From an uncultured Veillonellaceae bacterium (GTDB lineage Bacteria > Bacillota > Negativicutes > Selenomonadales > Selenomonadaceae), in contig CADCIX010000029.1 of NCBI GenBank assembly GCA_902801565.1, forward strand, positions 1 through 64,000: DNA of 64,000 nucleotides, read 5' to 3'. Below the pieces are notes generated by a model, which saw only the letters and a program-made list of their open reading frames with translations, was not told the DNA's origin and ran no database searches. A program made the position numbers and the translations under genes. Below are positions 18,213-42,752 of this stretch, one piece after another (the first letter of the stretch is position 1; the number at the start of each line of letters is the position of its first letter).

Positions 18213-18213
18213 G

Positions 18214-18728: not shown

Positions 18729-19868
18729 TCAGATTATGGCCGCTTCATACCCGCAAATCTTGTTCACCTCTGTTGCGAGGTGAAGGGCGGCACGGTAGCG
18801 TTCCTGATGTTTTTCCTTTTGTTTTTGTGTGACGCATTTTCTTGCGCTTCCTTCGAAGCGCTTCTTGAGGGATACCGGCCGGTCTTCCTGCACCAGCTTG
18901 TCCGCAAGGAAGACGAGGGCGGCTTCGTCCAGCTTCTTGTCGGGAGGCATGTCGTGATGTGTGCGTATGAGGGCGGCGATGTCCGGATAGCCGAGCCTGT
19001 CCAGATATTCGGCGCCTTGTTTCGCGTGGGCCTTTTCTGTCCGGGCGATGTCGTGGAGGAGGGCGGCGGATAGGGTCGGTTCCCTTGCGAGGAAGGTTCC
19101 CGCATCTTCCAGGGCAGACAGCAGCCTGTCTGCCTCCTTGGCAACAGCCATCGTATGGCGGACAACACGGGATGGCGTTTGTGCAGTTTCCAAAAGATCG
19201 AGACAGAAATCGCGATCCGGGATTGGATGCGGGACGCGTCCGAGTTCCTGGATCTTTAAGCCCCCGTTGGTTTCAATGACACTGGAAATCGAGCCATAGG
19301 GGGGCTTTTTCATGTTTGCCCTGTCGAAAGGAGGCTGGAGAAGCCTTTCCGTGCCTGCGCGGGTGAGTGAGGACAGGCCGTCAAGGGGGGGCAGGTTACC
19401 GAGCACAGCGAAGAAGGCCCGCAGGATGCCGGAATGGGTGACGAACAGGAGATTTCCCGGGACCTTTTGCGCCGCAGTTCCGATGGCATGAAGAAAACGC
19501 AGCAGCGACAGGCCCTGGGGTTCGGCCTGTGGAAGGGTGAGGAAGGGCTCCTTTCCCCGCCTCTCGTAGAGAAGGGGCCACCGCCTCCGGATTTCCTCGA
19601 AAGCAAGGCCGTCCCACTCTCCCGTGTCGATTTCCTGCAATCCCTCCAGTACATGGAATGGGCGGCGCAGGAGGGCCGCTGTCTGTCTTGCCCGCTGCAG
19701 GGGGCTGCAAAAGACGGCGGCGATTGGCAGGTTGTCCAGCTCGCGCCCGGCAACTGCTGCCTGAAGCCTGCCGAGGACAGAGAGCGGGAGCTCCCGTCTT
19801 CCGAGGCAGATGGATGTTCCTTCGGGGAAAGCAGGTTCGGCATGCCGAAGAAAACAGAGAGTTCTCAT
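18729..19868 (-). CDS. Histidine phosphatase-HD domain fusion protein
   Basis: Protein of 379 aa with two enzyme domains. Residues 1-190 are a phosphoglycerate-mutase-type histidine phosphatase (LRHAEP near residue 7, the FCSPLQRARQTA motif, GEWDG, and VTHSGI near 145), most like alpha-ribazole phosphatases. Residues about 235-379 are an HD phosphohydrolase (VRHTMAVAKEA, LLHDIART, RTHHDM). The substrate is unknown. ATG 19868 is chosen because GGGGGAA lies 6 bases upstream; the frame stays open another 92 codons upstream over a terminator and the next gene, which is not coding. Similar fusions near molybdenum hydroxylase genes suggest a link to cofactor metabolism, but this is an inference. 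Confidence 0.82.
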   Translation of the reverse strand: MRTLCFLRHAEPAFPEGTSICLGRRELPLSVLGRLQAAVAGRELDNLPIAAVFCSPLQRARQTAALLRRPFHVLEGLQEIDTGEWDGLAFEEIRRRWPLLYERRGKEPFLTLPQAEPQGLSLLRFLHAIGTAAQKVPGNLLFVTHSGILRAFFAVLGNLPPLDGLSSLTRAGTERLLQPPFDRANMKKPPYGSISSVIETNGGLKIQELGRVPHPIPDRDFCLDLLETAQTPSRVVRHTMAVAKEADRLLSALEDAGTFLAREPTLSAALLHDIARTEKAHAKQGAEYLDRLGYPDIAALIRTHHDMPPDKKLDEAALVFLADKLVQEDRPVSLKKRFEGSARKCVTQKQKEKHQERYRAALHLATEVNKICGYEAAII

Positions 19869-19897
19869 GATATTCCCCCATGGTTTGTCGTGATAAG

Positions 19898-19927
19898 AAA
19901 ACCACTGGAGTTGCCCCCAGTGGTTTT
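19898..19927 (-). terminator. Terminator of the heme-binding-like gene
   Basis: Perfect 11-bp stem AAAACCACTGG/CCAGTGGTTTT with an 8-base loop. Reading minus, it ends in TTTT, between the upstream gene stop and the phosphatase start. Confidence 0.75.
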
Positions 19928-19956
19928 GTTGTTTCCCGGAAAATGGGACGTTTCCA

Positions 19957-20892
19957 TCAATCGGCCATAGCTGCGACTGCGGCCTCTGCAACAGTGGTAT
20001 CTTCTGCCACGCTACCGCCGGATACGCCGATGGCGCCGATCTGCTTCCCACTCTTGTCATAGACCGGAATGCCACCGCCAAACTCCACGAGACGGCCTGC
20101 ATGCTGCACCGCGATTCCCTGGAGTTCCTGTCCCTGCTGGGCAAGTTCTTTTACCTTCGCGCTGGGCATCTTCAAGGCCACGGCCGTGAATGCCTTATTC
20201 GGGGCAATTTCGAGGCTTGCCAGGAGGGAATTTTCCATCCTGTGCAGCAGCACCAGATTGCCGCCCATATCCACAAAGGAAATGACCATGGGCACGTCGA
20301 TTTCGATGGCCTTTTTCTCCGCAGCATTCACTGCCAGGATGGCCTTGTCCAGCAATACTCCGCCGGAGGCTGCCTTGATCTCTTTTGCTTTCTTGTAGGC
20401 GTCGAGACCGGCCTGGGCAACGGAGGTATCCTCAGCCACGCTGCCGCCGGACACGCCGATGCCGCCGATCTGCTTCCCGGAAGCATCATAGATGGGGAGC
20501 CCGCCGCCGAATTCCACGATGCGGCCTGCATGCTGGACGGCAATGCCCTGCAATTCCTGTCCTTGCTGCGCAAGCTGTTTCACATTGGAGCTGGGCATTT
20601 TCAACGCAACGGCGGTAAAGGCCTTGTTCGGGGCAATCTCCAGGCTGGCCAGCAGAGAGCCTTCCATCCTGTGCAGCAGCACCAGATTCCCGTCCATATC
20701 CACCACCGAGATGACCATGGGCACATTGATTTCCTCTGCCTTGTTCTGGGCACCCGCCACCATGATCTTCGCTGCATCCAGCAGCTCACCCGTGGCGGTT
20801 CCCTTGGCCGAGGCATAGGGTGTGTTGACGAGCAGCAAGGCGCTCATCAGCAGGAATGCACCCAGACAGACCAAAAAACCGGACTTTCTCAT
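19957..20892 (-). CDS. Secreted tandem GlcG/HbpS-like (DUF336) protein
   Basis: Exported protein of 311 aa. Residues 1-30 are a signal peptide (MRKSGFLVCLGAFLLMSALL, then a YASA-like cleavage region). Two near-identical HbpS/GlcG (DUF336) domains follow, about residues 32-160 and 175-308. Each has the sequence order VPMVISVVD, HRMEGSLLASLEIA or its near copy, ALKMPS, QGIAVQHAGR, EFGGG and GVSGGSVAEDT. HbpS-type domains bind heme or corrinoids. The second copy is a clear internal duplication at both DNA and protein level. The promoter contains the 42-bp repeat also found before folE. Confidence 0.85.
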   Translation of the reverse strand: MRKSGFLVCLGAFLLMSALLLVNTPYASAKGTATGELLDAAKIMVAGAQNKAEEINVPMVISVVDMDGNLVLLHRMEGSLLASLEIAPNKAFTAVALKMPSSNVKQLAQQGQELQGIAVQHAGRIVEFGGGLPIYDASGKQIGGIGVSGGSVAEDTSVAQAGLDAYKKAKEIKAASGGVLLDKAILAVNAAEKKAIEIDVPMVISFVDMGGNLVLLHRMENSLLASLEIAPNKAFTAVALKMPSAKVKELAQQGQELQGIAVQHAGRLVEFGGGIPVYDKSGKQIGAIGVSGGSVAEDTTVAEAAVAAMAD

Positions 20893-23886: not shown

Positions 23887-26631
23887 ATGATCAAGAAGCC
23901 GTTTATCATCAATGGAGTGGAGAGGAAGCTTATACTGGAGGGTGACGAGACTCTCGCAACCGTCCTGCGTGAAAGGCTGCTGCTCACGGGCTGCAAGATC
24001 GGCTGCGGACAGGGACATTGCGGCGCCTGCAACGTCATCGTGGATGGGAAAATCGTGAAGTCCTGCCTGCAGAAGGCCGTGAAACTGCCCGATTATGCAG
24101 AGATCACCACCATTGAGGGCGTTGGCACGGTGAACAGCCTCCATCCCCTGCAGGTCGCATGGATGGCCTATGGCTGCGCCCAGTGCGGTTTCTGCAGCCC
24201 GGGCTTTATCATCAGCGCGAAGGTGCTTCTGGAGCAGAATCCCAGCCCGACCCGCCAGGAGGTCCGCGACTGGTTCCACAAGTCCCGCAATCTCTGCCGC
24301 TGCACGGGTTACAAGCCTTTGATTGACGCTGTCATGGCAGCCGCTGAGGTCATGCGCGGCGAGAAGATGAAGGAAGACCTTCTCTTCATGCCCACCGAGA
24401 ACCGCATCACGGGCACGAAGTTCGTGCGCCCCTCCGCAGCCATGAAGGTCACGGGAACCTGGGACTTCGGTGCGGATGAGGCCCTGCATATGCCGGAGGG
24501 AACGCTCCGCCTCGCCCTCGTGCAGGCAGAGGTTTCCCATGCGAACCTGAAGGGCGTGGATACCTCCGAGGCCGAGAAGATGCCCGGTGTCTTCAAGATC
24601 ATCACGGCGAAAGACGTTCCCGGCAAGAACCGCATCAACGGGCTTGTCATGCTGCCGCTCAACAACAAGTGCGATGGATGGGATCGTCCGATCCTCTGCG
24701 ATGAGAAAATCTTCCAGTTCGGTGATGCTATTGCCATCGTGGCCGCTGACACGGAGGCCCATGCCAAGGCAGCTGCCGCAGCGGTGAAGGTGGATCTGGA
24801 GCAGCTTCCCGCCTATATGAGCGTGCCGGAAGCCATCGCCCCGGATGCCATCGAGATTCATCCCGGCACCCCGAACGAGTACTATGAGACGAATGCCATC
24901 AAGGGGCCGGATTTTGATTGGGATGCCTGCCCGGAGAAGAACCAGGTCGAGGTCGAGAGCTATTGCTCGCGTCAGCCCCATCTCTTCCTTGAGCCTGACT
25001 GCGGATATGCCTACATCGATGAGGATGAGATGCTGACCATCCATTCCAAGTCCATCGGCATCCATCTGCACATGCCGATGATTGCAGAAGGCATCGGCAT
25101 TCCCATGGAGAAGCTCCGCATGGTGCAGAACCACACGGGCGGCACCTTCGGCTACAAGTTCTCCCCGACGAACGAGGCAATTCTCGGCGTGGCGGCATTG
25201 GTCTGCAAGCGCCCCGTTACGCTGAACTTCAACATGTTCCAGTCCATCACCTATACGGGCAAGCGTAGCCCGGGCTTCATGCACATCAAGCTCGCGGCAG
25301 ACGACAACGGCAAGCTGCTTGCTCTCTGGGGCCGCAACTACATCGACCATGGCCCGTATTCCGAGTTCGGCGATCTGCTGACCCACCGCCTGACCCAGTT
25401 CGTGGGCGCGGGCCTTGACATCCCGTCCATCCGGAACAAGAGCACGACGGTGTTCACGAACCATGCCTGGGGCAGCGCATTCCGTGCCTATGGCTCGCCG
25501 CAGTCCTTCATGGGAAGCGATATCGCCATCGACTGCCTTGCGGCAAAGATGGGCATCGATCCCTTTGAGATGCGGGCGATGAACTGCTACAAGGAAAAGG
25601 ATGATTCCCGCACGCCGACGGGCTGCAAGCCGGATGTCTACTGCGAGGAAGATCTTTTCAACCTGGCGCGTCCCCATTATGAGGCGGCGAAGAAGCGTGT
25701 GGCGGAGAAGAACGCGGCATCGGACGGCAAGATCAAGTACGGCATCGGCGTTTCCCTCGGTGTCTATGGATGCGGCCTTGACAATACGGACACTTCCGAA
25801 TGCTATGCGGACCTGAATCCCGATGATACGGTGACGCTGCGCAATTCCTGGGAGGATCATGGACAGGGTGCCGACATTGCGACACTGACGGCCGGGCATG
25901 AGGTCCTGCGTCAGGCAGGCTTCACACCCGATCGCATCAAGCTGGAGCTCTGCGACTCCAAGCTTTGCCCGAACTCCGGTCCTGCAGGCGGCAGCCGCTC
26001 CACGGTCATGACGGGTTCCGCAACCCGCGTTGCCTGCGAGAATCTCCTGAAGGCCATGAAGAAGCCCGACGGCTCCTATCGCACCTATGCCGAGATGAAG
26101 GCAGAGGGCATCGATACCCATGTGACGGGTGTCTACAGCTACACGGCGTCCGTTGCGCTGGATCAGGCCACGGGCCAGGGCGAGCCCTTCCCCACCTACA
26201 TGTACACGATTTTCCTGCCGGAGGTTGCCGTGGATACGGAAACGGGCAAGGTGACGGTGGAGAAATTCACGGCGGTGACGGACTGTGGCACGATCCTCAA
26301 CCAGCTGGCGGTGGACGGCAACTTCTACGGCGGCCTGGTGCAGGGCATCGGTCTTGCATTGACGGAGGACTTCGAGGACCTCAAGAAGCACACCAGCCTG
26401 ATGAAGTGCGGCATTCCTTATCCGAAGGATGCGCCGGATGACATCGAACTGGTCTACCAGACGAACCATCCGCGTCCGAACGGTCCCTTCGGTGCTTCCG
26501 GTTGCGGTGAGGCACCCCTGGATGCACCTCATCCCGCCATCCTGAACGCCATCTACAATGCGACAGGGGCAAGGATCACGCGCATCCCGGCACGTCCAGA
26601 GAATGTGCTGGAGGCGCTGAAGGCGTTGTAA
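23887..26631 (+). CDS. mop: Mop-type molybdenum aldehyde oxidoreductase
   Basis: Single-chain xanthine-oxidase-family hydroxylase of 914 aa, closely resembling Desulfovibrio gigas aldehyde oxidoreductase. The plant-type [2Fe-2S] cluster uses Cys40, 45, 48 and 60; the second uses Cys100, 103, 137 and 139, the same numbering as D. gigas from memory. The molybdopterin domain follows with GTFGYKFSPTNEA, AFRAYGSPQ and DHGQGADI, and the catalytic Glu lies in GASGCGEAPL at residue 875. It should oxidise an aldehyde or related substrate with molybdopterin cytosine dinucleotide and no FAD domain. ATG 23887 follows AGGGGGAA. XdhC (16.1 kb), the NTP transferase (22.4 kb) and the operon at 31-40 kb are the likely maturation factors. 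A terminator follows at 26669. Confidence 0.92.
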   Translation: MIKKPFIINGVERKLILEGDETLATVLRERLLLTGCKIGCGQGHCGACNVIVDGKIVKSCLQKAVKLPDYAEITTIEGVGTVNSLHPLQVAWMAYGCAQCGFCSPGFIISAKVLLEQNPSPTRQEVRDWFHKSRNLCRCTGYKPLIDAVMAAAEVMRGEKMKEDLLFMPTENRITGTKFVRPSAAMKVTGTWDFGADEALHMPEGTLRLALVQAEVSHANLKGVDTSEAEKMPGVFKIITAKDVPGKNRINGLVMLPLNNKCDGWDRPILCDEKIFQFGDAIAIVAADTEAHAKAAAAAVKVDLEQLPAYMSVPEAIAPDAIEIHPGTPNEYYETNAIKGPDFDWDACPEKNQVEVESYCSRQPHLFLEPDCGYAYIDEDEMLTIHSKSIGIHLHMPMIAEGIGIPMEKLRMVQNHTGGTFGYKFSPTNEAILGVAALVCKRPVTLNFNMFQSITYTGKRSPGFMHIKLAADDNGKLLALWGRNYIDHGPYSEFGDLLTHRLTQFVGAGLDIPSIRNKSTTVFTNHAWGSAFRAYGSPQSFMGSDIAIDCLAAKMGIDPFEMRAMNCYKEKDDSRTPTGCKPDVYCEEDLFNLARPHYEAAKKRVAEKNAASDGKIKYGIGVSLGVYGCGLDNTDTSECYADLNPDDTVTLRNSWEDHGQGADIATLTAGHEVLRQAGFTPDRIKLELCDSKLCPNSGPAGGSRSTVMTGSATRVACENLLKAMKKPDGSYRTYAEMKAEGIDTHVTGVYSYTASVALDQATGQGEPFPTYMYTIFLPEVAVDTETGKVTVEKFTAVTDCGTILNQLAVDGNFYGGLVQGIGLALTEDFEDLKKHTSLMKCGIPYPKDAPDDIELVYQTNHPRPNGPFGASGCGEAPLDAPHPAILNAIYNATGARITRIPARPENVLEALKAL

Positions 26632-28330: not shown

Positions 28331-28339
28331 GATGCTTAA

Positions 28340-28368
28340 AAGTTTTTAAATACTCTATTTAAAAACTT
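28340..28368. promoter_or_regulatory. Perfect palindrome before the AAA gene
   Basis: AAGTTTTTAAA (28340-28350), 7-base centre, TTTAAAAACTT (28358-28368). It lies about 50 bp before the AAA gene start and is a candidate operator or AT-rich cruciform. Confidence 0.45.
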
Positions 28369-28419
28369 GCTTATATTTGGTAATTTTTATATACTTTACT
28401 TGAAAGAGGGTGATGCACG

Positions 28420-29625: not shown

Positions 29626-29678
29626 CCCCTTCCTGCAAGGTTTTCGGGGGAGGGATGAAGCCGTGGAATGCTTCTGGT

Positions 29679-30683: not shown

Positions 30684-30703
30684 GCAGAATCTCCCCTCTC
30701 TTG

Positions 30704-30964
30704 TCAATCCTTTTTGTTGAGGAACAGGCCGAGCTTGTGTTCCAGTTCGCGGATCCGTTCCCGGTCGCGGCTCCGCATCTCATAGATGGCGGAAAAGCTG
30801 TCCACCCACATCATCAGGAACTTCTTGAAGCTGTCTGCCACCACCTGGTCATCCTCGCATATGATATTCACGGCTTTTGTGGCACGGTCAAAGGCATCGA
30901 TCAGAATGCCCCATGCCTCATCCTGGCTGATGCCGGCTTCCTGTTTGTTGTCGTTTTCTTCCAT
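30704..30964 (-). CDS. Hypothetical protein
   Basis: Acidic helical protein of 86 aa beginning MEENDNKQEAG. Its C-terminus (RSRDRERIRELEHKLGLFL) looks like a coiled coil. ATG 30964 has GAGGG 8 bases upstream; a longer in-frame start at 30994 is possible. It ends 21 bp before the oxidoreductase start and is probably in the same transcript. No family recognised. Confidence 0.6.
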   Translation of the reverse strand: MEENDNKQEAGISQDEAWGILIDAFDRATKAVNIICEDDQVVADSFKKFLMMWVDSFSAIYEMRSRDRERIRELEHKLGLFLNKKD

Positions 30965-31013
30965 AGTGTAGTCCCTCGCAAAAGCCTTCTCCAATATGTC
31001 CTGGGTAAGCAGT

Positions 31014-31102
31014 GACCTCCATTTGCAAGCATCGTGGATTTACCTGTACAATGGATTGCAAGAATCAATCTCCGCAGGGATTACCGCATACAAATGGAGG
31101 TC
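31014..31102. repeat. Long inverted repeat between divergent genes
   Basis: GACCTCCATTTG (31014-31025) and CAAATGGAGGTC (31091-31102) are perfect 12-bp arms enclosing 65 bases that contain a further small hairpin (GGATTG...CAATC). It lies 150 bp before the maturation operon and 50 bp from the divergent small gene. Function unknown: a regulatory RNA structure or operator is possible. Confidence 0.5.
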
Positions 31103-31259
31103 GTTATATCAAGTATAATCTATCTTGGGGCAGATGTCAAAATTTTGCTCCATTTTGTGGATAGGGAACTGTTCATTTTTTTCTGATAATCTGATAAAAT
31201 AGAATAATAGATACGTGGTCAGCAGTCGGGCATAGAAGACCGGAGGGATGATGGGCGTT

Positions 31260-33575
31260 ATGAAAGAACACTTTAAGGAAAGGAACACGAGAGACTACCA
31301 TCAGAAGCGGCTTTTCACCAAGGAAGAACTGGAGGAAAGGGAGAGCCTTTGCGTCCATGAGCAGTCGCCCTTCTGTTCTGCGGCCTGCCCCATGAAGCTG
31401 GATGTGCGGGATTTTGTCCGGCGGATGGCGGCGAAGGATTTCACGGGGGCCCGCGCCATGCTGGAGCGGATTTCCCCTTTCCCGGAAATCCTTGCCCACG
31501 GCTGCAGCCATCCCTGTGAGGCGGCCTGCCGGATGGGGGAGGCAGGGGAGAGCATCGCGATTGCCGATCTGGAACGGGTCGCCATGTTCCTGGGTGCGCC
31601 AAAAAAGGGGAAGGGGCTCCTGAAATTCAAGAAGAAGAAGCGGGCGGCGGTTTTCGGTGGGGAGCTGTTCACCCTTGTGGTGGCGGCGCAACTGGCGGAC
31701 AAGAGCTATCCTGTGGAGTTCTATGTGGAGGCAGGGGATGCGGAGTCCCTGCTGAAACAGTGCGCCCCCTTTCTTTCGGAGGAGATTCTGGCAAGTGCCG
31801 TGAGGCGCCTGCAGTCCATGGACATGAAGATTTTTTACGGTACGGACCTTTCCTCCGCTTTTGTGGAAGAAAAGAGGGGGGCCTTTGACCTGCTCTGCGC
31901 CGCCGGCTATCTGGCGAAGGAAAGTCCCGATGCAGATACGCTGCTGGGAAAGGACGGGATTCTCTATCCATCGGAGGAGGGGGGCGAGTGCCTTCGCACC
32001 TTCTACGATGCCAGGAGGGCAAGCGTTTCAGCGGACCGTCTGGCGCAGGGGCTGGATCCCTCCACCATGAGAGGGGAAGAAGGGACGGTCACTTCGCGCC
32101 TCTACACGAACATGGGGCAGGTGGAGCCATCTAAGCGCATTCCCCTGCGAGGTGAGGGGGAGGCCTATGATGGGGAGAAGGCCGCAGAGGAGGCGGTGCG
32201 ATGCATCCAGTGTGTCTGCGAGGAATGCCTGAAGGGCTGCACCTATCTGCGCCATTTTGCGAAGCATCCCCGCATCCTGACGCGGGAAATTTACAATAAC
32301 ACGGGCATCATCATGGGGGACCATATGATGAACAAGGCCATGAACAGCTGCTCCCTCTGCGGCCAGTGCGCCGTCACCTGCCCGAACGGCTATGACATGG
32401 GGGAGATCTGCCGTCTGGCCAGGGAAAATATGGTGGACACGGGCAAGATGAGCCTTGCCGTCCATGAGTTTGCCTTGCAGGACATGCTGTTTTCCAATAC
32501 GGAGGGCTTCCTGAGCTGCGTTCCCAAGGGGCAGGAACAGGGGTGCCGTTATGTCTTTTTCCCCGGCTGCCAGGCGGGGGCGGTTGCGTCGGAGGCCGTT
32601 TTGAGGGCCTATCGGGATCTGGCGGGTCGTCTTGACGGCGGCGTTGCACTGATGCTGGGATGCTGCGGCGCCATAGCGAAATGGGCCGGACGGCGGGAGC
32701 TGTTGAACGAGCAGAAGGATTTCCTGCGGCAGGAGTTTGGGAAGCTGGGAAGCCCAGTGATTCTCGCAGCCTGCCCTACTTGCAGGAAGACACTGGAGGA
32801 GGAAGGACTGGGGCAGGTGAAGAGCCTTTGGGAGACACTCCTTGAGATCGGTCTGCCCGAAGGAAGCGCCTGTCATGAGGAGAAAGTGGTCCTGCACGAT
32901 GCCTGCGGGGCGCGGAATGACCAGAAAATGCGGCAGGACGTGAGGGAGATTGCCGGGCGGCTCGGTTTCCGGCTGCTTCCTGCGGAGTGGGAGGGGGAAA
33001 AGACTTCCTGCTGTGGCTATGGAGGGCTTGTTGCCTATGCCAACCGGGAAATGGCCGCCGAAATGGCGGAGGATTGCAGGAAGGAGTTCCCCGATGCGCC
33101 TTATATCACCTACTGCATGGCCTGCAGGGACCGTCTGGCGCGGCAGGGGGCGCAGTCGATGCACCTTCTGGAGCTTTTGTATGAGTGTCCTGCGGGCACG
33201 CCGCCGGACATATCGGAGAAACGGAGGAACCGGCTTCTCCTGAGGGAGACGATTTTGCGGGAATTCGGCGGGGGAGATGACATGTCTCCTGCAGGGAATG
33301 GCTGCGCCTCGCCGGAGGAAATGGGTTTTCGGGCGGTAATCACGGAGGAGGCCCGCAGGCAGATGGATGACAGGATGATCCTCGACACGGATGTCTGGAA
33401 GGTGATGGGGCATTACCGGGATACGGGGGAAGCTGTTCTCGACCAGAGGACGGGGCTCCTGATTGCCCGGCTGCGGATCGGTAATGTGACCTTCTGGGTG
33501 AAGTTCACCGAGGATGGGGCGGGTTATATCATCCGTGGGGCATACAGCCACCGGATGCTGGTGCGGACGAGATAG
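31260..33575 (+). CDS. Pyridine nucleotide-disulfide oxidoreductase-like / Fe-S CCG-domain protein
   Basis: First gene of the maturation operon, about 771 aa. The N-terminal third resembles the Fe-S domain of GltB-small-subunit/HdrA-like proteins (CSAACPMKLDVRDFVRR, HGCSHPCEAACRMGE). Next comes a degenerate flavoprotein-like region with GELFTLVVAAQLAD. The centre has a [4Fe-4S] pair (CIQCVCEECLKGCTYL; CSLCGQCAVTCPNGYDMGEIC). The C-terminal half carries two CCG-type heterodisulfide reductase repeats (GCCGAIAKWAG, ACPTCRKTL; CCGYGGLVAYANRE). Such proteins pass electrons to disulfide or metal centres. From memory, this is the oxidoreductase/dicluster-binding protein of the DVU_1558-type neighbourhood. 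The start is uncertain: GGAGGG at 31242 fits 31251 or 31260; 31248 is the longest. Confidence 0.8.
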   Translation: MKEHFKERNTRDYHQKRLFTKEELEERESLCVHEQSPFCSAACPMKLDVRDFVRRMAAKDFTGARAMLERISPFPEILAHGCSHPCEAACRMGEAGESIAIADLERVAMFLGAPKKGKGLLKFKKKKRAAVFGGELFTLVVAAQLADKSYPVEFYVEAGDAESLLKQCAPFLSEEILASAVRRLQSMDMKIFYGTDLSSAFVEEKRGAFDLLCAAGYLAKESPDADTLLGKDGILYPSEEGGECLRTFYDARRASVSADRLAQGLDPSTMRGEEGTVTSRLYTNMGQVEPSKRIPLRGEGEAYDGEKAAEEAVRCIQCVCEECLKGCTYLRHFAKHPRILTREIYNNTGIIMGDHMMNKAMNSCSLCGQCAVTCPNGYDMGEICRLARENMVDTGKMSLAVHEFALQDMLFSNTEGFLSCVPKGQEQGCRYVFFPGCQAGAVASEAVLRAYRDLAGRLDGGVALMLGCCGAIAKWAGRRELLNEQKDFLRQEFGKLGSPVILAACPTCRKTLEEEGLGQVKSLWETLLEIGLPEGSACHEEKVVLHDACGARNDQKMRQDVREIAGRLGFRLLPAEWEGEKTSCCGYGGLVAYANREMAAEMAEDCRKEFPDAPYITYCMACRDRLARQGAQSMHLLELLYECPAGTPPDISEKRRNRLLLRETILREFGGGDDMSPAGNGCASPEEMGFRAVITEEARRQMDDRMILDTDVWKVMGHYRDTGEAVLDQRTGLLIARLRIGNVTFWVKFTEDGAGYIIRGAYSHRMLVRTR

Positions 33576-33584
33576 GAGGGCGGC

Positions 33585-33806
33585 ATGGCGGAAACGAAGA
33601 GTTATTACACCATAGAGACGGACGGGACACTGCTCTGCCAGAAATGCAAGGTTCCCCTGGAAAAGGCGGATGCCGTGTTCAGCTATCTTGAGAATGCCTT
33701 TCCCGTGGAGCTTCCGGTCTGCCCCAAATGCGGCTTCGTCTACGTGCCGGAGGAGCTTGCCTTGGGAAAGGTGTTGTCCGTGGAAAAGGTGCTGGAGGAC
33801 AAATGA
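33585..33806 (+). CDS. DVU_1557-type zinc-ribbon redox protein
   Basis: Protein of 73 aa with two CxxC knuckles (LLCQKCK near residue 17, VCPKCGFVYVPEELALG near 45). It probably binds zinc or iron and may carry sulfur or electrons. It starts 10 bp after the oxidoreductase and overlaps the methyltransferase by 4 bp (ATGA). In the Desulfovibrio neighbourhood, from memory, an equivalent small redox protein sits at the same place. Confidence 0.8.
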   Translation: MAETKSYYTIETDGTLLCQKCKVPLEKADAVFSYLENAFPVELPVCPKCGFVYVPEELALGKVLSVEKVLEDK

Positions 33807-34357
33807 GGAAAGAGTCCCTTCATCCCGGCGGGAGGGAAACCACCCTGCGGTTGCTGGAAATGGCCGAAAAATATGGACTCCCCTCCGGGAAACGATGCGC
33901 CCTGGACATGGGGGCGGGAGATGGAAGCACCCTGCGCCTCTTGAGGGAACTCGGATGGGAGGCAGAGGGCATTGACCGGAAGCCCGGCGATGGGGTTTCC
34001 GTGGGTGATCTGCTTTGTACCTCCTTTCCGGACAAAAACTTTGACCTCGTGATTTCCGAATGTGCCTTTTACGTTGCGGGAGACGTTGCGGGAGCTCTTC
34101 GGGAGGCCTGGCGCCTTCTGAGGGGAAAGGGGCTGCTTGCCCTGGGGGATGTATATTTTGGCGGTCCTGAACAATGGAGGGAGCTGCTGGAGAGGCAATC
34201 CTTTTGTGTGCTGGAGATGGAAGATCTCACGGAGCGCTGGCGGGAATACTATCTGGAATGCGTATGGATGGGACGGACGGAGGTTCTTTGCCATGAACGA
34301 CGGAAGGGCTGCCGCTATTTCTTGACTGTTGCGGGAAAGGAGGAGGCACATGGATGA
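33803..34357 (+). CDS. SAM-dependent methyltransferase (DVU_1556 type)
   Basis: Class I methyltransferase of 184 aa. SAM-binding motif I is ALDMGAGDGSTLRLLRELG near residue 33, motif II DLVISECAFYVAGD near 85, then a post-motif LLRGKGLLALGDVYFGGP. ATG 33803 overlaps the previous stop, so coupling is expected; the frame upstream of it is not coding. The substrate is unknown; given its neighbours it may methylate a cofactor precursor or a protein of the maturation system. Confidence 0.85.
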   Translation: MRKESLHPGGRETTLRLLEMAEKYGLPSGKRCALDMGAGDGSTLRLLRELGWEAEGIDRKPGDGVSVGDLLCTSFPDKNFDLVISECAFYVAGDVAGALREAWRLLRGKGLLALGDVYFGGPEQWRELLERQSFCVLEMEDLTERWREYYLECVWMGRTEVLCHERRKGCRYFLTVAGKEEAHG

Positions 34358-34775
34358 TGCATTGGAACGCATGCTGGAGCTTTCGCGGGAAGGCTTTTTC
34401 TGCGCGCAGATCCTTTTGATGCTGGCACTGGAGTCCGAGGGGAAGGAAAATCCGGATCTCGTCCGGGCCATGGGCGGACTGAACGGCGGAATCGGCAACA
34501 CGGGGGACGTGTGCGGTGCCTTGACGGGCGGGGCCTGCTTCCTCTCGTATTTCCTGGGCAAGGGAGAGGCCGATGAGCTGGAGCATCCGGAGTGGAAGGA
34601 GATCATGGAAGAGTATGTGGGCTGGTTCCGCCAATACGCCGCCGAGTATGGGGGGATATCCTGCAAGTGCATCCTGGAGGGGGACGAGCGGAACAAGATC
34701 CAGCGCTGTCCCATGGTGATGCAGGCGGTTCTGGAAAAGTGCATGGAACTTTTGGAGGTTCATGAGGCTATTTGA
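34350..34775 (+). CDS. C-GCAxxG-C-C family protein (DVU_1555 type)
   Basis: Protein of 141 aa. Cysteines are arranged as in the C_GCAxxG_C_C family: CAQILLML near residue 18, then GDVCGALTGGACFLSYFLG near 54, then SCKCILEG and RCPMVMQAV. The family is linked to redox, selenium or metal proteins; the central motif could hold a cluster or relay thiols. The start overlaps the methyltransferase end by 8 bp, with AAAGGAGGAGG before ATG 34350. Confidence 0.85.
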   Translation: MDDALERMLELSREGFFCAQILLMLALESEGKENPDLVRAMGGLNGGIGNTGDVCGALTGGACFLSYFLGKGEADELEHPEWKEIMEEYVGWFRQYAAEYGGISCKCILEGDERNKIQRCPMVMQAVLEKCMELLEVHEAI

Positions 34776-34787
34776 GGAGGGAAGCCC

Positions 34788-35909
34788 ATGGAGAAGATCG
34801 TGTACCTGAACAATGCGGCCACGAGCTGGCCCAAGCCGGACTGCGTGGCGGAGGCCGTGCAGAAGGCGCTGCAATCGCCGCCGGGCTCCATGCATCGCGG
34901 CGGCATAGAGGATGTGGATGTCTTCGCATTGGTAAGGCAACGGCTTGCGACACTGCTCGGCGTGAAGGATGCGGAGTGCATTGCCCTGGGGTCCAATGCG
35001 ACCTGGGGGCTGAATCTTGCCCTGCATGGCTTTCCTCTTCAGGCAGGGGATGTGGTGGTGACTACAAGGGCGGAGCACAACAGTGTCCTGCGTCCCCTGT
35101 ACCAAAGGGCCGTGAAAGAGGGAATTCGGGTCGTGTATCTGGACACGGATGAGGTGGGACGGGTGCCCCTTTCCTTCTGGGAAAGGGCCATGGCCGACTA
35201 TCGTCCGAGGCTTGCGGTGTTCACCCACGCCTCCAATGTGACGGGGGCCGTCCATGATGCCGCAGAAATGACAGCCCTGGCGAAGTCCGTTGGGGCGGCT
35301 GTTCTTCTGGATGCCTCCCAAAGCCTCGGATGGATTCCCCTGGAGGCAGATTCCTGGGGCATTGACATGATTGCCTTCACGGGACATAAATACCTTCTGG
35401 GCCCCCAGGGGACGGGGGGGCTTTTTGTGCGGAAGGGCATCTCCCTGCAGCCTTGGCTGCAGGGAGGCACAGGAATCCGAAGCGAACTGGAGGAAATGCC
35501 CGAGGAGATGCCGCTCCGTCTGGAGGCGGGAACGGGCAACGAGCCGTCATTCCACGGGCTGCTTGCGGCTTTGGAATGGGCCGGGGAGCATCCTCTGGAG
35601 GAGGCAGAACATCGGGCGTTGCTGGGATATCTTCGGGAGGGCCTGATGGATGCCGGTGCGAGAGTTATCCTCCCCGATGGGCTCACCACCCCGGTGGTGA
35701 GCTTCATCTTGTCGGAGGAAAGCGTGGCCGATGTGGGCTATATCCTGGGGGAAAGTTATGACATCATCTGCAGGACAGGACTGCACTGCGCGCCGAAACT
35801 GTTTTCCTGCCTTGGGGTTTCGGAGACAGTGCGGATATCTCTCTCCCGATTCACACAGAAGGAGGATGTGGATGCCGTGCTTGAGGCAGTGAGGGATATT
35901 AGGGGATGA
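34788..35909 (+). CDS. Class V aminotransferase, cysteine desulfurase-like
   Basis: PLP enzyme of 373 aa. The N-terminus YLNNAATSWPKPDCVAEAV is the SufS/CsdA-type start. The PLP lysine lies in FTGHKYLLGPQGTGGLFV near residue 204, and the persulfide cysteine in CRTGLHCAPKLF near residue 330. It should release sulfur (or selenium) from cysteine (or selenocysteine), which could sulfurate the molybdenum cofactor of Mop. ATG 34788 has GAGGAGGGAAG upstream. It overlaps the next gene by 4 bp. Confidence 0.88.
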   Translation: MEKIVYLNNAATSWPKPDCVAEAVQKALQSPPGSMHRGGIEDVDVFALVRQRLATLLGVKDAECIALGSNATWGLNLALHGFPLQAGDVVVTTRAEHNSVLRPLYQRAVKEGIRVVYLDTDEVGRVPLSFWERAMADYRPRLAVFTHASNVTGAVHDAAEMTALAKSVGAAVLLDASQSLGWIPLEADSWGIDMIAFTGHKYLLGPQGTGGLFVRKGISLQPWLQGGTGIRSELEEMPEEMPLRLEAGTGNEPSFHGLLAALEWAGEHPLEEAEHRALLGYLREGLMDAGARVILPDGLTTPVVSFILSEESVADVGYILGESYDIICRTGLHCAPKLFSCLGVSETVRISLSRFTQKEDVDAVLEAVRDIRG

Positions 35910-36187
35910 GATTCGAGCGGAAGAAAGTGGAGAATTGCTTTGCCGATTCCAGGACCTATGAATACCGGATCCCTGTTTCCGGCGAGGCACTGGCAGAGTC
36001 CCTGCCCGATGTCTGGGAAATTCGTCGGAACGAGAGATTGCGTCGTCCGGTATTCATCGCGAAAAAGGAAGGCATCCATCTCAAGGGGCTTTTGGCTGGC
36101 CATGCGGTGCGGGCGAGTTTTCTGGAGACGGAGTGGGAGGCAAGGCAGAAGGAGTTTGAGGATTGGATGGAGGATATGGATGGCTAG
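35906..36187 (+). CDS. Uncharacterised small protein of the maturation operon
   Basis: Protein of 93 aa beginning MRFERKKVENCFADSRTYEY, with a basic, beta-rich first half and an acidic helical C-terminus (WEARQKEFEDWMEDMDG). It overlaps its neighbours on both sides (4 bp and 8 bp), so it belongs to the same coupled operon. No family recognised; it might be a protein partner of the desulfurase or the radical SAM enzyme. Confidence 0.7.
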   Translation: MRFERKKVENCFADSRTYEYRIPVSGEALAESLPDVWEIRRNERLRRPVFIAKKEGIHLKGLLAGHAVRASFLETEWEARQKEFEDWMEDMDG

Positions 36188-37592
36188 TGAGATTGCGAGC
36201 ACCATGAGCGTGTGCCCCGTCTGTCTGCGGAAATTGCAGGCGCACAAGGTGGTGGGGGAAGACGGTTTCGTCCATATGGAGAAGGAGTGCCCGGAGCATG
36301 GTCATTTCGATGTCCTGCTCTGGGAGGGGGATGCTGCAAGCTACAAAGCGTGGGGGGATGTGCCCTCTGCTCCGGTGACGCCTGTGGGAGCTCGTCCCGC
36401 AGAGCGGGGATGTCCCTATGACTGCGGCCTTTGCGAGGCGCATTTGAGGGATGGCTGCTGCGTCCTGCTGGAACTGACGAACCGCTGCAATCTCCGCTGC
36501 CCCGTCTGCTTTGCTGCTGCAGGGGAAGAGAAGGGCATCCTGGAACCGGGGCTGGAGGAAATCGGGAAAATCTACGATATGCTGATGGCCCGGGGAGGCC
36601 CCTTCAATATCCAGCTTTCGGGGGGCGAGCCGACCCTGCGGGAGGATCTGGCGGATATTATCGCATTGGGCAGGGAGAAGGGATTCTCTTTTTTCCAGCT
36701 CAATACCAACGGCCTGCGGATTGCCGGGGAGGAGGGATATGCCCGTGCACTCTTTGAGGCAGGGGTATCCTGTGTGTTCCTGCAGTTCGATGGCTTGCGG
36801 GATTCCGATTATGAAGCCCTGCGCGGCGGGGCGCTTCTGGCGAAGAAGCTCCGTGTAGTGGAACTCTGCAAGGAGGCCGGGCTCCCCGTGGTTCTGGTTC
36901 CCACCATAGTGCCGGGAATCAATGAGGATGCCATCGGCGACATCCTGGACTTTGCCCTTTCCCATGCGCCCGGTGTTCGCGGAGTGCATTTCCAGCCGGT
37001 CAGCTATATGGGAAGGAATTCCCTGCCGTCCCGGGAACGGATTACCCTTCCAAGGATTCTGCGGGATATCGAACAGCAGACAAATGGCAGGATGAAGGCT
37101 TCCGATTTCAGCGGCGGCGGTGCAGAAAATCCCTATTGCTCCTTCCATGCGGCCTATCGGATTGGCCTGGATGGCACATGTAAGGCACTGGCAAAGCGTG
37201 GGAGCTGCTGCTGTTCGGCCGATGCGCCCGCAGGGGAAACGTCCTGTTGCACGGATGAGGCTCCCGGTTCCTGCTGCACAGGGGAAGGAAGAGAGGCAAG
37301 GCCGGTCAAAAGCTCGGAGGCGCGGGATTTCGTTGCGCGGCAATGGGGTGCATGCACATCCTGCAGCGAGGATGTGCCGGGGACGGAGGCTTCCTCACTG
37401 GATGCCTTTCTGGAACAGGCGGTGCTGCAGACCTTCACCGTATCGGGGATGTTGTTTCAGGATGCATGGAATCTGGAACTGGACAGGCTGCAGCGTTGCT
37501 ATATCTGCGAGGCGGATGCTGAGCGGGGCATGATTCCCTTTTGCGCCTATAATCTGACGGATGGGAAGGGGAGGGCTCTGTACAGGAAATGA
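36180..37592 (+). CDS. Radical SAM protein with Cys-rich insert (TrsS-like)
   Basis: Radical SAM enzyme of 470 aa. A zinc-ribbon-like N-terminus (VCPVCLRKLQAHKV, then ECPEHGHFDVL) precedes the radical SAM core. The CX3CX2C motif in TNRCNLRCPVCFA is at residues 103, 107 and 110, then NIQLSGGEPTLREDL near 143. At residues about 340-365 there is an insert with three cysteine clusters (SCCCS, SCCTD, SCCTG), and the C-terminus has RCYICEADAERGMIPFCAYN. ATG 36180 is set by GGAGG 6 bases upstream; the ORF extension to 35940 is not coding. From memory, homologues in Desulfovibrio-like genomes are (seleno)proteins named TrsS; here all positions are Cys. Reaction unknown. Confidence 0.85.
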   Translation: MASEIASTMSVCPVCLRKLQAHKVVGEDGFVHMEKECPEHGHFDVLLWEGDAASYKAWGDVPSAPVTPVGARPAERGCPYDCGLCEAHLRDGCCVLLELTNRCNLRCPVCFAAAGEEKGILEPGLEEIGKIYDMLMARGGPFNIQLSGGEPTLREDLADIIALGREKGFSFFQLNTNGLRIAGEEGYARALFEAGVSCVFLQFDGLRDSDYEALRGGALLAKKLRVVELCKEAGLPVVLVPTIVPGINEDAIGDILDFALSHAPGVRGVHFQPVSYMGRNSLPSRERITLPRILRDIEQQTNGRMKASDFSGGGAENPYCSFHAAYRIGLDGTCKALAKRGSCCCSADAPAGETSCCTDEAPGSCCTGEGREARPVKSSEARDFVARQWGACTSCSEDVPGTEASSLDAFLEQAVLQTFTVSGMLFQDAWNLELDRLQRCYICEADAERGMIPFCAYNLTDGKGRALYRK

Positions 37593-38857
37593 GCGAGATG
37601 GGACGCACGAGGCTGGATGGGCTGATCTGCAGACAGGAACATTGGAAGGAACTGACAAGGGAGAGGCTGGAGGAGCTTCAGCTTCGCCGTCTGAACGAGC
37701 TTCTGGCCAGGGAGAAAAGGCGGAAGGGATTTTACCGGGATTTGCCGGAGCGTCTGTCCTCGTTGAAGGAGCTTCGGAAACTTCCCTTTACGACTCCTTC
37801 CATGCTGGCAGAGCAGGGAAACCGCATGCTCCTTCTCTCCCAGTCGGAGATTCTGCGGGTGATATCCGGCGAGACCAGCGGCACCAGCGGGCAGGCGAAG
37901 CGGGTTTTCTATACGGAGCGGGATCTCTGCCACACGGTGGAGCTTTTTGAGACCGGCATCGGCGAGATGTGCGGCATTGGGAACCGCGTGCTCATCGACA
38001 TGCCCTTTTCGGGGGAGCATGGGCTGGGAAACCTGATCGAGCGGGCCGTTGAGCGGACCGGAGCCCTTCCACTGCGAGGCGGGGGCGGAAGCTGGAAAGA
38101 ACGCATCTGCCGCATCCGCGAGGGAAGACCGGACTGCATCATTGGCTTCCCTGTTCCCTTGATGGGGACGGCGCGGCTTTACGCCCATGTTTATGGGAGA
38201 GATGATTTCCCCATACGGAAGGCGCTGGTTTCGGGGGACGCTTGTCCGCCCGGGGTATTGAAATGCCTGGAGGAGGAGTTTTCCATGACCCTGTTTCCTC
38301 ACTATGGCTCCCGGGAAATGGCCCTTGCAGGGGCAATCACCTGCCCGGCTCATGAGGGGATGCACCTCCGCGAGAACCACATTCTGGCGGAAATCGTCGA
38401 TGACGCAGGGAATGTCCTGCCCGACGGGGAGGAAGGGGAGCTGGTGATCACCACTCTGGACATGGAGGCCATGCCCCTGCTTCGCTATCGGACCGGGGAC
38501 CGGACACGGTTCCTTTTGGAGCCGTGTCCCTGTGGAGGCGTGACGAGGCGTTTGGACAGGGTATCGCGGATGGCCAAGGACGTCTTCTGGATGGAGGAAC
38601 TGGACGACCTGCTTTTCCCGGTGAAAACCCTGGTGGACTATCGCGCTGCATGGGACAGGGATGGGCTTTTCCTTGCGGCAAGGACCTTGGAGGGCCATGG
38701 GGCAGAGGAATTGGAAGAGAGAATCGGCTGGAAATATCCGGGTCTTTCCCTGCAGTTGGAGGTTTCGCCCTGCCGCTTGGAGGAATTTCCATGTTATAAG
38801 GGAAAACGCTGTGTTGAGAAAATTTGTCATGTGTTTGATATGGAAGGAGAAAGCTGA
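37589..38857 (+). CDS. Phenylacetate-CoA ligase-like AMP-dependent ligase (DVU_1553 type)
   Basis: Adenylate-forming enzyme of 422 aa of the PaaK class. The P-loop motif ETSGTSGQAKRVFYTERD lies near residue 95, then FPHYGSREMALAGA near 232 and RYRTGDRTRFLLEPCPCGG near 300. Such enzymes activate a carboxylate with ATP and usually pass it to CoA; the true substrate is unknown. It overlaps the radical SAM gene by 4 bp (ATGA). A CoA ligase among cofactor-maturation genes suggests a modified carboxylate-containing group is being built. Confidence 0.85.
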   Translation: MSEMGRTRLDGLICRQEHWKELTRERLEELQLRRLNELLAREKRRKGFYRDLPERLSSLKELRKLPFTTPSMLAEQGNRMLLLSQSEILRVISGETSGTSGQAKRVFYTERDLCHTVELFETGIGEMCGIGNRVLIDMPFSGEHGLGNLIERAVERTGALPLRGGGGSWKERICRIREGRPDCIIGFPVPLMGTARLYAHVYGRDDFPIRKALVSGDACPPGVLKCLEEEFSMTLFPHYGSREMALAGAITCPAHEGMHLRENHILAEIVDDAGNVLPDGEEGELVITTLDMEAMPLLRYRTGDRTRFLLEPCPCGGVTRRLDRVSRMAKDVFWMEELDDLLFPVKTLVDYRAAWDRDGLFLAARTLEGHGAEELEERIGWKYPGLSLQLEVSPCRLEEFPCYKGKRCVEKICHVFDMEGES

Positions 38858-39885
38858 TGAAAGAGATAAGGACCGAAGATGCTGTGGGGCATGTCCTGTG
38901 CCATGATGTGACGCAGATTATCCGTGGGGTGACGAAAGGGGCGCGCTTCCGCAAGGGGCATGTGATTGCTGAGGAGGATATTCCAGTGCTTCTGTCCCTT
39001 GGGAAGGACCATGTCTACGTTTGGGAAAATGACGAGTCGATGCTCCATGAGAATGACGCGGCAGAGATTCTGAGGCAGGTCTGCCAAAACGATGGCATGG
39101 AAGCCTCGGAGCCGAAGGAGGGGAAAATCGAGCTGAAGGCCCTTCAGGATGGCGTGTTCCATGTGGACGAGGAACGATTCGATGCCATCAATGAGCTGGA
39201 TGACATCGTCATTGCCACGATTCCCCAGAATTTTCCCGTGAAGCAGGGAACGAAGCTGGCGGGGATGCGGGTGGTTCCCCTGGTCATCGGGAAGGAAAAG
39301 ATGGAGGAGGTCCGGAAGCTGGCCGGGGAGGCGCCCCTTTTCGAGCTGCGTCCCTACAGGAAGATGAAGGTGGGTGTTGTCACCACGGGAACAGAGGTGT
39401 TCCTCGGACGCATCAAGGATACCTTTACCCCGGTGCTGGAGGCAAAGCTCAATGCCTTTGGGCTTCGCGTGGACGAGCATCGCCTGTCGGATGACGTGAC
39501 GGAACATACAAGGGAAAAGATACAGGAGCTTTTGGACCTGGGCATGGACATGGTGCTCTGCACCGGCGGTATGAGCGTGGACCCGGATGACCGCACGCCG
39601 GCGGCAATCCGGGCGGCAGGGACGAGGGTCGTGACCTATGGCGCGCCAGTCCTGCCGGGAGCGATGTTCCTTCTGGCCTATTGGGAGAAGGACGGGCGGA
39701 ATGTGCCGGTCCTTGGGCTTCCCGGCTGCGTTATGTACAGCCCCGCGACGATCTTCGATATCGTCCTGCCGCGCCTGCTCACAGGGGAAATCCTGACTAA
39801 ACGGGAACTGCGGCATCTGGGCATCGGCGGGCTTTGCATGGGCTGCAAGAGCTGTCATTACCCGGTGTGCGGGTTCGGGAAGTAA
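38857..39885 (+). CDS. Molybdopterin-binding MoeA-like protein
   Basis: Protein of 342 aa. The N-terminal part (VGHVLCHDVTQIIRGVTKGA) and the MoCF core (VGVVTTGTEVFLGRIKDTFT near residue 170; MVLCTGGMSVDPDDRTPAAI near 230) are of the MoeA/CinA type that binds molybdopterin. The C-terminal tail ends GLCMGCKSCHYPVCGFGK, a four-Cys motif absent from ordinary MoeA that may hold a metal or pass sulfur. It starts on the last base of the ligase stop (TGATG), so it is translationally coupled and closes the operon. Confidence 0.85.
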   Translation: MKEIRTEDAVGHVLCHDVTQIIRGVTKGARFRKGHVIAEEDIPVLLSLGKDHVYVWENDESMLHENDAAEILRQVCQNDGMEASEPKEGKIELKALQDGVFHVDEERFDAINELDDIVIATIPQNFPVKQGTKLAGMRVVPLVIGKEKMEEVRKLAGEAPLFELRPYRKMKVGVVTTGTEVFLGRIKDTFTPVLEAKLNAFGLRVDEHRLSDDVTEHTREKIQELLDLGMDMVLCTGGMSVDPDDRTPAAIRAAGTRVVTYGAPVLPGAMFLLAYWEKDGRNVPVLGLPGCVMYSPATIFDIVLPRLLTGEILTKRELRHLGIGGLCMGCKSCHYPVCGFGK

Positions 39886-40967: not shown

Positions 40968-41543
40968 ATGGGGATGAACGAAAAGGCAGCCAGGGCGATG
41001 CGGGAGTTCCTGGAGGCGTTGGGAATCGATCTCAAGGCGGCCGGCATGGAGAAGACGCCGGAACGGGTGGCGATAATGTACGGGATGCTCTTTGACGGCA
41101 TTGGCCGGGAGACACGGGACATCTGGGGGGAGATGTTTGATGCGGGGCCCGGGACCGATGGCATCGTGGCTGTGCGGCATGTTCCCTTTTACTCCATGTG
41201 TGAGCATCATCTCGTGCCTTTCTTCGGCGAGGTGAATATCGCCTATCTTCCTGCTCCCTGCGGTGTGGCTGGGTTCAGCAAATTCACGAAGCTGGTGGAG
41301 ATCATCTCCCATCGTCCCCAGATTCAGGAGCGCATGACCGGGGAGATCGCCGAGGCCATCGCTGCAGATCTGCGGGCACAGGGGGTGCTGGTGACGGTGG
41401 AGGCGCAGCAGCTCTGCATGACCATGCGGGGAGATCTCGCCCATGGCACGCGCACCGTGACTTCCTTCAGTACGGGGCGGTTCCGTGAGGATGCGACGCT
41501 CCGGCAGCAGGCCTGGAATCTTTTGGGAAAGGAAAACAAATAA
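40968..41543 (+). CDS. folE: GTP cyclohydrolase I
   Basis: First enzyme of folate synthesis: GTP to 7,8-dihydroneopterin triphosphate. 191 aa, the normal length. Zinc and substrate residues lie in FYSMCEHHLVPFFG (near residue 74) and in QQLCMTMRGDLAHGTRTVT. ATG 40968 or ATG 40974 could start it; GGGGAA precedes both. It heads an operon folE-folP-folB-folK/folA with 3-bp or overlapping junctions. Confidence 0.94.
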   Translation: MGMNEKAARAMREFLEALGIDLKAAGMEKTPERVAIMYGMLFDGIGRETRDIWGEMFDAGPGTDGIVAVRHVPFYSMCEHHLVPFFGEVNIAYLPAPCGVAGFSKFTKLVEIISHRPQIQERMTGEIAEAIAADLRAQGVLVTVEAQQLCMTMRGDLAHGTRTVTSFSTGRFREDATLRQQAWNLLGKENK

Positions 41544-41546
41544 CCC

Positions 41547-42751: not shown

Positions 42752-42752
42752 G

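What the first reader, a model, noticed from the sequence alone, without database searches (positions are those of the whole stretch)
31260..39885. Nine-gene coupled operon for an undescribed molybdenum-hydroxylase maturation or cofactor-modification pathway
Nine genes overlap or nearly touch (junctions of 10 bp, -4, -8, 13 bp, -4, -8, -4, -1), which shows they act together. The mix is unusual: Fe-S/flavin oxidoreductase, zinc-ribbon redox protein, SAM methyltransferase, C-GCAxxG-C-C protein, cysteine desulfurase-like PLP enzyme, radical SAM enzyme, PaaK-like CoA ligase, and a MoeA-like protein with an added four-Cys tail. The gene types match, from memory, the DVU_1551-DVU_1558 set next to the Desulfovibrio aldehyde oxidoreductase gene. 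A Mop enzyme, XdhC and the DVU_1551-type NTP transferase are also in this window. A radical SAM enzyme plus ligase plus methyltransferase points to synthesis of a modified group, not just cofactor sulfuration. No product is known to me.
Basis: partly seen in the sequence, partly recalled or inferred. Interest (0 to 1): 0.85.

Follow-up and report, generated by a model that had tools for sequence, protein, structure and literature searches.

The report
TrsS-type aldehyde oxidoreductase maturation operon
These nine genes are a copy of a gene set, already named in databases but never explained, that almost always accompanies one enzyme, the molybdenum aldehyde oxidoreductase known from Desulfovibrio, and most likely helps to make that enzyme active, although what the genes produce is still unknown.

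Summary
The operon is real: nine tightly coupled genes at 31248-39885, with Mop, an XdhC-like factor and the NTP transferase nearby. It is not undescribed: NCBIfam already models most of these proteins as DVU_1551-1558 families plus the radical SAM protein TrsS. Tests here show that the set follows one enzyme, the one-subunit aldehyde oxidoreductase Mop (crystallised from D. gigas), not molybdenum hydroxylases in general. Co-occurrence was 25 both / 1 Mop only / 4 TrsS only / 170 neither in the window's class and 139/4/2/54 in Desulfovibrionia. Gene order is conserved across phyla. Eighteen extra Mop copies lack TrsS, ligase and methyltransferase, and in three genomes TrsS lies away from a Mop operon, so it probably acts in trans, as maturation genes do. 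D. gigas itself carries the operon, yet its enzyme is described with ordinary MCD and Mo=O, which argues against a stable cofactor modification. TrsS keeps the metal-site residues of tetraether synthase. New here: orf93 (15 of 15 copies abut TrsS) and sm87, two unmodelled families with an invariant cysteine. The product remains unknown.

The parts
31248..33575 (+). diclust: GltD-like N-terminal domain, 4Fe-4S dicluster, two CCG domains and a C-terminal domain (NF045663)
   Evidence: NF045663 759.8 bits, cut-off 530; Pfam Fer4_20, CCG, Fer4_17; flavin GxGxxG degenerate here, intact in most relatives
33585..33806 (+). ZnR: DVU_1557 family redox protein, two CxxC
   Evidence: NF045645 92.3 bits, cut-off 60; DUF7479
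33803..34357 (+). SAM methyltransferase, DVU_1556 type
   Evidence: NF045667 90.2 bits, under cut-off 155; SAM motif and one family-wide Cys conserved
34350..34775 (+). C-GCAxxG-C-C protein, DVU_1555 family
   Evidence: NF045669 157.7 bits, cut-off 103
34788..35909 (+). PLP cysteine desulfurase-like enzyme
   Evidence: PF00266, TIGR01977 303 bits under cut-off 377; PLP Lys201 and catalytic Cys334 (RTGLHCAP) present
35906..36187 (+). orf93: small protein with invariant Cys11 (NCF motif), candidate sulfur acceptor
   Evidence: no Pfam/NCBIfam hit; 15 of 15 copies in 200 class genomes abut TrsS; Cys11 invariant
36180..37592 (+). TrsS radical SAM protein (Cys form)
   Evidence: NF045646 560.7 bits, cut-off 490; Tes metal-site residues kept
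37589..38857 (+). PaaK-like adenylate-forming ligase, DVU_1553 family
   Evidence: NF045666 318.7 bits, cut-off 300; S97/G98 loop, D304, K406 conserved
38857..39885 (+). MoeA/MogA-like molybdopterin-binding protein with CxxCxxCx4C tail
   Evidence: PF00994 83 bits; tail conserved in 34 homologues; the gene most often kept beside extra Mop copies
23887..26631 (+). Mop, one-subunit molybdopterin aldehyde oxidoreductase, the presumed client
   Evidence: NF045668 1492.6 bits; full-length match to D. gigas and D. desulfuricans AOR structures; only PF02738 match in the genome
16092..17126 (-). XdhC-like aldehyde oxidoreductase maturation factor
   Evidence: NF045664 312.5 bits, just under cut-off 350
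18729..20144 (-). CobC-like phosphatase fused to the HD half of the DVU_1551 protein (start codon uncertain)
   Evidence: NF045665 profile residues 197-359 and TIGR03162
22444..23406 (-). MCD-type NTP transferase fused to a ModE domain
   Evidence: NF045665 profile residues 2-196, TIGR03310, TIGR00637
23512..23775 (-). sm87: small protein with invariant C-terminal Cys82
   Evidence: no NCBIfam hit; homologues beside Mop/TrsS in many loci

Best explanation
A copy, probably acquired from Oscillospiraceae/Clostridia-like bacteria, of the widespread TrsS/DVU_1551-1558 gene set, which works in trans to mature or activate the Mop-type (D. gigas) aldehyde oxidoreductase. Shown here as association: the set is tied to this one enzyme subfamily, one set accompanies several Mop copies, and TrsS stays in the genome even where it has left the operon. 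Inferred from families: the MoeA/MogA-like protein and the NTP transferase build Mo-MCD, and the XdhC-like protein carries it to Mop. The dicluster protein, zinc ribbon and C-GCAxxG-C-C protein supply and pass electrons. TrsS, the adenylating ligase and the methyltransferase carry out a radical step on an adenylate-activated group, most likely in a cofactor intermediate or a small helper molecule whose trace does not persist in the finished enzyme. In some lineages, as here, a cysteine desulfurase passes sulfur to orf93. Substrate and product are not known.
For: Co-occurrence 25/1/4/170 in 200 class genomes, p=1e-26; three of the four TrsS-only genomes hold Mop fragments. Desulfovibrionia 134/7/4/54, corrected after reading loci to 139/4/2/54. 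40 of 50 TrsS genomes from many phyla have Mop over the cut-off. Of 47 loci with enough flank, 42 have diclust and 37 Mop upstream in the same order. 18 extra Mop loci: none with TrsS, ligase or methyltransferase, 7 with a full-length MoeA-like gene. G222, G244, G245: Mop operon without TrsS, TrsS elsewhere in the genome. NCBIfam calls the XdhC-like family an AOR maturation factor. The genome has MoaA and Mop but no SelD over cut-off. The tree places the window's TrsS with Oscillospiraceae/Clostridia.
Against: Co-occurrence and order show association, not function, and Fisher values ignore relatedness. A few clusters with diclust-ZnR-TrsS and usually ligase have no Mop beside them (L097, L113, L124-L126), and the L097 genome has no Mo hydroxylase match (the record may be incomplete). 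A few Mop genomes show no TrsS (G054, G288, G424, G430, G456; some may be incomplete). No substrate, product or mutant is known. The extra Mops might simply not need the system.
Confidence: 0.62

Rival explanations
1. The set makes a stable chemical modification of the Mop cofactor.
For: Radical SAM enzyme, adenylating ligase and methyltransferase together with molybdopterin-binding proteins.
Against: D. gigas carries the operon, yet structures of its enzyme are described with ordinary pyranopterin cytosine dinucleotide, Mo=O and no sulfido ligand (PMC3877041, PMC10223205). The supposed pterin-methylating relative MJ0619 proved to be a lipid synthase (PMC9433317).
Confidence: 0.13
2. The TrsS branch makes a separate small redox cofactor or electron carrier used by the dicluster protein or Mop, as in other radical SAM cofactor pathways.
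For: Clusters with diclust, ZnR, TrsS and usually ligase but no Mop (L097, L113, L124-L126); diclust-ZnR are kept with some extra Mops; Mop lacks a flavin subunit (PMC10223205).
Against: Near-strict genome-level tie to Mop; no precursor peptide or carrier common to all clusters was seen, only a lipoyl-domain protein in L126.
Confidence: 0.14
3. The set is a sulfur (or selenium) insertion system giving Mop a Mo=S or Mo=Se ligand.
For: Cysteine desulfurase with intact Lys201/Cys334, XdhC-like protein, orf93 with an invariant Cys.
Against: Desulfurase and orf93 occur in a minority of sets (10 and 6 of 80 loci); D. gigas AOR needs no sulfido ligand (PMC3877041); no SelD over cut-off in this genome.
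Confidence: 0.07
4. The genes form a metabolic pathway that uses Mop as one step, not a maturation system.
For: Ligase, methyltransferase and oxidoreductase could belong to catabolism.
Against: Conserved in many phyla; one set with several Mops; TrsS retained when relocated.
Confidence: 0.04

Closest known systems
DVU_1551-1558 gene set with TrsS (NCBIfam NF045645, NF045646, NF045663-NF045667, NF045669; Haft and Tolstoy 2025, cited in PMC13188914)
   Same: Same families and close to the same order, with Mop in the neighbourhood
   Different: Here Mop and the XdhC/NTP-transferase genes are separated from the operon, the NTP-transferase-HD protein is split between two fusion proteins, a desulfurase-orf93 pair is present, and TrsS is a Cys form with a Cys-rich insert
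D. gigas aldehyde oxidoreductase (1VLB/1SIJ)
   Same: Mop matches it over the full length; the same operon surrounds its gene
   Different: No desulfurase-orf93 pair was seen in the D. gigas set; here Mop lies about 4.6 kb from the operon
Tetraether lipid synthase Tes/GDGT-MAS (7TOL)
   Same: TrsS keeps rubredoxin-site, N-terminal-cluster and radical SAM ligands and the labile Met (M424) plus C440 and C455
   Different: 331.8 bits, under the Tes cut-off of 450; TrsS has its own invariant C93 and C320 and no lipid gene context was noted
Selenium-dependent molybdenum hydroxylase system (YqeB/YqeC/SelD)
   Same: XdhC-like protein, MocA-like transferase and GltD-like protein beside a Mo hydroxylase (from family knowledge)
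   Different: No SelD over cut-off here; different client and extra radical SAM enzyme, ligase and methyltransferase
PaaK phenylacetate-CoA ligase (4R1L)
   Same: Adenylate-forming fold by sequence, conserved loop, Asp304 and C-terminal Lys406
   Different: Substrate unknown; only 113.9 bits

Membership tests
DVU_1551-1558/TrsS gene set | TrsS, diclust, DVU_1557, DVU_1555 and DVU_1553 families over their curated cut-offs | tested here: met
   560.7/490, 759.8/530, 92.3/60, 157.7/103, 318.7/300 bits
DVU_1551-1558/TrsS gene set | DVU_1556 methyltransferase, XdhC-related factor and full-length DVU_1551 transferase over cut-off | tested here: not met
   90.2 against 155, 312.5 against 350; DVU_1551 split over two genes, 193.3 and 126.5 against 315. 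These families are still the best hits, so the locus is filed as a divergent copy of the set; equivalence is not claimed for these three proteins
DVU_1551-1558/TrsS gene set | Conserved gene order with Mop in the same genome | tested here: met
   Same order; Mop 4.6 kb upstream across a 49% GC stretch
DVU_1551-1558/TrsS gene set | Needed for active Mop | not testable with these tools
   needs deletion and assay
Mop / NF045668 aldehyde oxidoreductase | Over cut-off 1100 bits and one-subunit architecture | tested here: met
   1492.6 bits; residues 1-913 aligned to 1SIJ
Mop / NF045668 aldehyde oxidoreductase | Sulfido-free Mo with MCD in the mature enzyme | not testable with these tools
   Described for D. 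gigas (PMC3877041)
Tetraether synthase Tes | NF045702 over cut-off 450 | tested here: not met
   331.8 bits
Tetraether synthase Tes (works like) | Ligands of the metal sites | tested here: met
   C12/C15/C37/H40, C78/C82/C85/H88, C103/C107/C110, M424 with C440/C455 conserved in 78-80 of 80; full set of C-terminal cluster ligands not checked
Selenium-dependent Mo hydroxylase system | SelD in the genome | tested here: not met
   best 51.7 bits against cut-off 125
Cysteine desulfurase (class V) | PLP lysine and catalytic cysteine | tested here: met
   Lys201, Cys334, PF00266
MoeA | Curated MoeA model over cut-off | tested here: not met
   PRK10680 21.1 against 440; only the molybdopterin-binding domain PF00994 is met

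The most novel reading that the evidence does not exclude
TrsS uses a Tes-like cluster-sulfur chemistry to form a C-S or C-C bond in a labile or transient cofactor intermediate, which takes the place of the usual Mo=S sulfuration and explains why Mop-type aldehyde oxidoreductases are the exception in the xanthine oxidase family; orf93 and sm87 are new cysteine carriers of this pathway.
Probability: 0.18. Interest if true: 0.82.

Novelty: new member of a known kind. Interest (0 to 1): 0.52.

Why it matters
D. gigas aldehyde oxidoreductase is a classical molybdenum enzyme and the odd one out in its family, because it works without the sulfido ligand. In the papers found here no dedicated maturation genes were described for it. 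The tests tie a conserved radical SAM gene set, present in hundreds of genomes, to this very subfamily, and give concrete deletions to make in a tractable host. If confirmed, this would reveal a new step in molybdenum enzyme maturation and a bacterial role for a relative of tetraether synthase.

Tried and rejected
Pterin methylation by TrsS by analogy with MJ0619: dropped as an argument, because MJ0619 is a lipid synthase (PMC9433317) and the Pfam name HMPTM rests on the old assignment. Selenium-dependent reading: no SelD over cut-off; in the named loci in-frame TGA appears only in two TrsS matches, L075 (two) and L111 (one, with a frame change), and neither was resolved. Folds of orf93 and sm87: usable models (pLDDT 91 and 84) but no convincing PDB match (Foldseek E over 0.1; best Z 7.9 and 3.0). 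TrsS without Mop as proof against the link: most cases turned out to have Mop elsewhere or in fragments. Haft and Tolstoy 2025 could not be read, so its own proposal for TrsS is not represented here. Promoter and terminator scans were uninformative.
Full report
OBSERVATION. Families: dicluster oxidoreductase NF045663, DVU_1557 redox protein, DVU_1556-like methyltransferase, DVU_1555 C-GCAxxG-C-C protein, cysteine desulfurase-like enzyme, an unmodelled 93-aa protein (orf93), TrsS, DVU_1553 ligase, and a MoeA-like protein. Mop, an XdhC-like factor and the two halves of a DVU_1551-type protein lie upstream. This is therefore a divergent copy of a gene set that NCBI has already modelled. A 2026 review lists TrsS (NF045646) as a selenoprotein family and cites Haft and Tolstoy 2025 (PMC13188914); that paper is not held. 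DVU_1559 is the D. vulgaris aldehyde oxidoreductase (PMC10920352).

CONSERVATION. Five further genomes of the same class show the set beside Mop. A scan of GTDB contigs found at least 567 TrsS relatives; the 80 best, with flanks, span Bacillota, Thermodesulfobacteriota, Chloroflexota, Acidobacteriota, Spirochaetota, Myxococcota, Campylobacterota and Pseudomonadota. The order is Mop-diclust-ZnR-MTase-CGCA-TrsS-ligase, often followed by XdhC, NTP transferase and phosphatase, with the MoeA-like gene before Mop. Of 47 loci with enough flank, 37 have Mop and 42 have diclust in the expected place.

CO-OCCURRENCE. Window class, 200 genomes: TrsS and Mop 25, Mop only 1, TrsS only 4, neither 170; one TrsS counted among the 25 (G156) is cut by contig ends, and three of the four TrsS-only genomes have fragments of Mop. 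71 genomes have only other Mo hydroxylases over the search threshold, and those four are among them. Desulfovibrionia, 199 genomes: 134/7/4/54, and 139/4/2/54 after finding that three 'Mop only' genomes hold TrsS with long inserts and two 'TrsS only' ones have Mop beside it. In the second set Mop was sought with a 411-residue D. gigas query, not the family model. p-values (1e-26, 3e-41) ignore relatedness. Across phyla 40 of 50 TrsS genomes have Mop over cut-off.

TRANS ACTION. Eighteen extra Mop copies were examined: none has TrsS, ligase or methyltransferase in the fetched stretch, seven keep a full-length MoeA-like gene and three keep diclust plus zinc ribbon (some species are close relatives). 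In G222, G244 and G245 a Mop operon lacks TrsS, while TrsS sits elsewhere (in G245 the operon runs to a contig end). In C. ragsdalei (G244) there are two TrsS copies, one on a contig that also carries Mop fragments and one beside a CobW-like GTPase and molybdate transport genes with ModD. This pattern is what trans-acting maturation genes would give; it does not prove it.

WHAT IS KNOWN OF THE CLIENT. Genome G303 holds a protein 100% identical to the D. gigas sequence 1SIJ over the 411 residues searched, so it is taken as D. gigas. There MoeA-like, Mop, diclust, ZnR, MTase, CGCA, TrsS, ligase, XdhC and phosphatase lie in a row. The D. gigas enzyme is described with pyranopterin cytosine dinucleotide and an oxo in place of the sulfido ligand, and its activity depends on the redox state of a dithiolene sulfur (PMC3877041, PMC10223205). 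So the operon is present in the organism whose mature enzyme is described without an unusual cofactor. A permanent modification is thus unlikely; a transient, labile or separate product is not excluded.

CHEMISTRY. TrsS is nearest to tetraether synthase (369 bits for the profile). Conserved in 78-80 of 80 sequences are C12/C15/C37/H40 (rubredoxin site), C78/C82/C85/H88, C103/C107/C110, M424, C440 and C455, and C93 and C320, which are particular to TrsS or not aligned with Tes. [quoted passage not shown] The same paper rejects the pterin-methylase role of MJ0619, so TrsS gives no hint of pterin methylation. The ligase keeps its adenylation residues, including C-terminal K406. The step these enzymes take is inference.

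THIS COPY. The window's TrsS groups with Oscillospiraceae and Clostridia and not with most of its own class, so horizontal gain is likely. Mop and operon are 59-60% GC, the stretch between them 49%. The NTP transferase is fused to ModE and the HD half to a phosphatase. The dicluster protein has a degenerate flavin motif, shared with related copies (L035, L042, L062). TrsS has a Cys-rich insert. orf93 is exclusive to this context in the class, 15 of 15 copies abutting TrsS; sm87 carries an invariant Cys near its end.

VERDICT. A real, widely conserved, already named but unexplained gene set, most probably for maturation or activation of Mop.

Noticed in passing
window 35906-36187: orf93, a family without Pfam or NCBIfam model, invariant Cys11, always next to TrsS in 200 class genomes.
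   Followed up: yes
window 23512-23775: sm87, another small family without an NCBIfam model beside Mop/TrsS, with an invariant C-terminal Cys.
   Followed up: partly
window 26632-31247: Low-GC (49%) stretch with ATP-binding-type proteins and a Gfo/Idh-like oxidoreductase between Mop and the operon; looks inserted.
   Followed up: partly
window 17340-18603: Two adjacent ORFs that look like a split TnpB/IS605-type transposase near the XdhC-like gene (read from the sequence, not scanned).
   Followed up: no
window 19957-20916: Protein made of two similar repeats with weak matches to heme-degrading (HbpS-like) domain families.
   Followed up: no
window 40968-43754: Folate genes downstream, including a folK-dihydrofolate reductase fusion at 42735-43754.
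   Followed up: no
L089 9968-12145: TrsS fused to a domain like the metal-binding double selenoprotein MbdU (117.9 bits, under the model cut-off), in Desulfosporosinus.
   Followed up: partly
L126 6794-14242: Mop-free TrsS cluster with a lipoate-protein ligase and a lipoyl-domain protein, and a rhodanese further on.
   Followed up: partly
L088 8234-16912; L063 7200-8348: Lone TrsS beside a CobW-like GTPase, in C. ragsdalei next to molybdate transport genes and ModD.
   Followed up: partly
L027 (same genus, G001): Homology to the window begins at TrsS; the operon is broken upstream, by rearrangement or misassembly.
   Followed up: partly
L162-L164 (Desulfovibrionia): TrsS with long inserts (675-743 aa frames) that family searches score in pieces.
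   Followed up: partly
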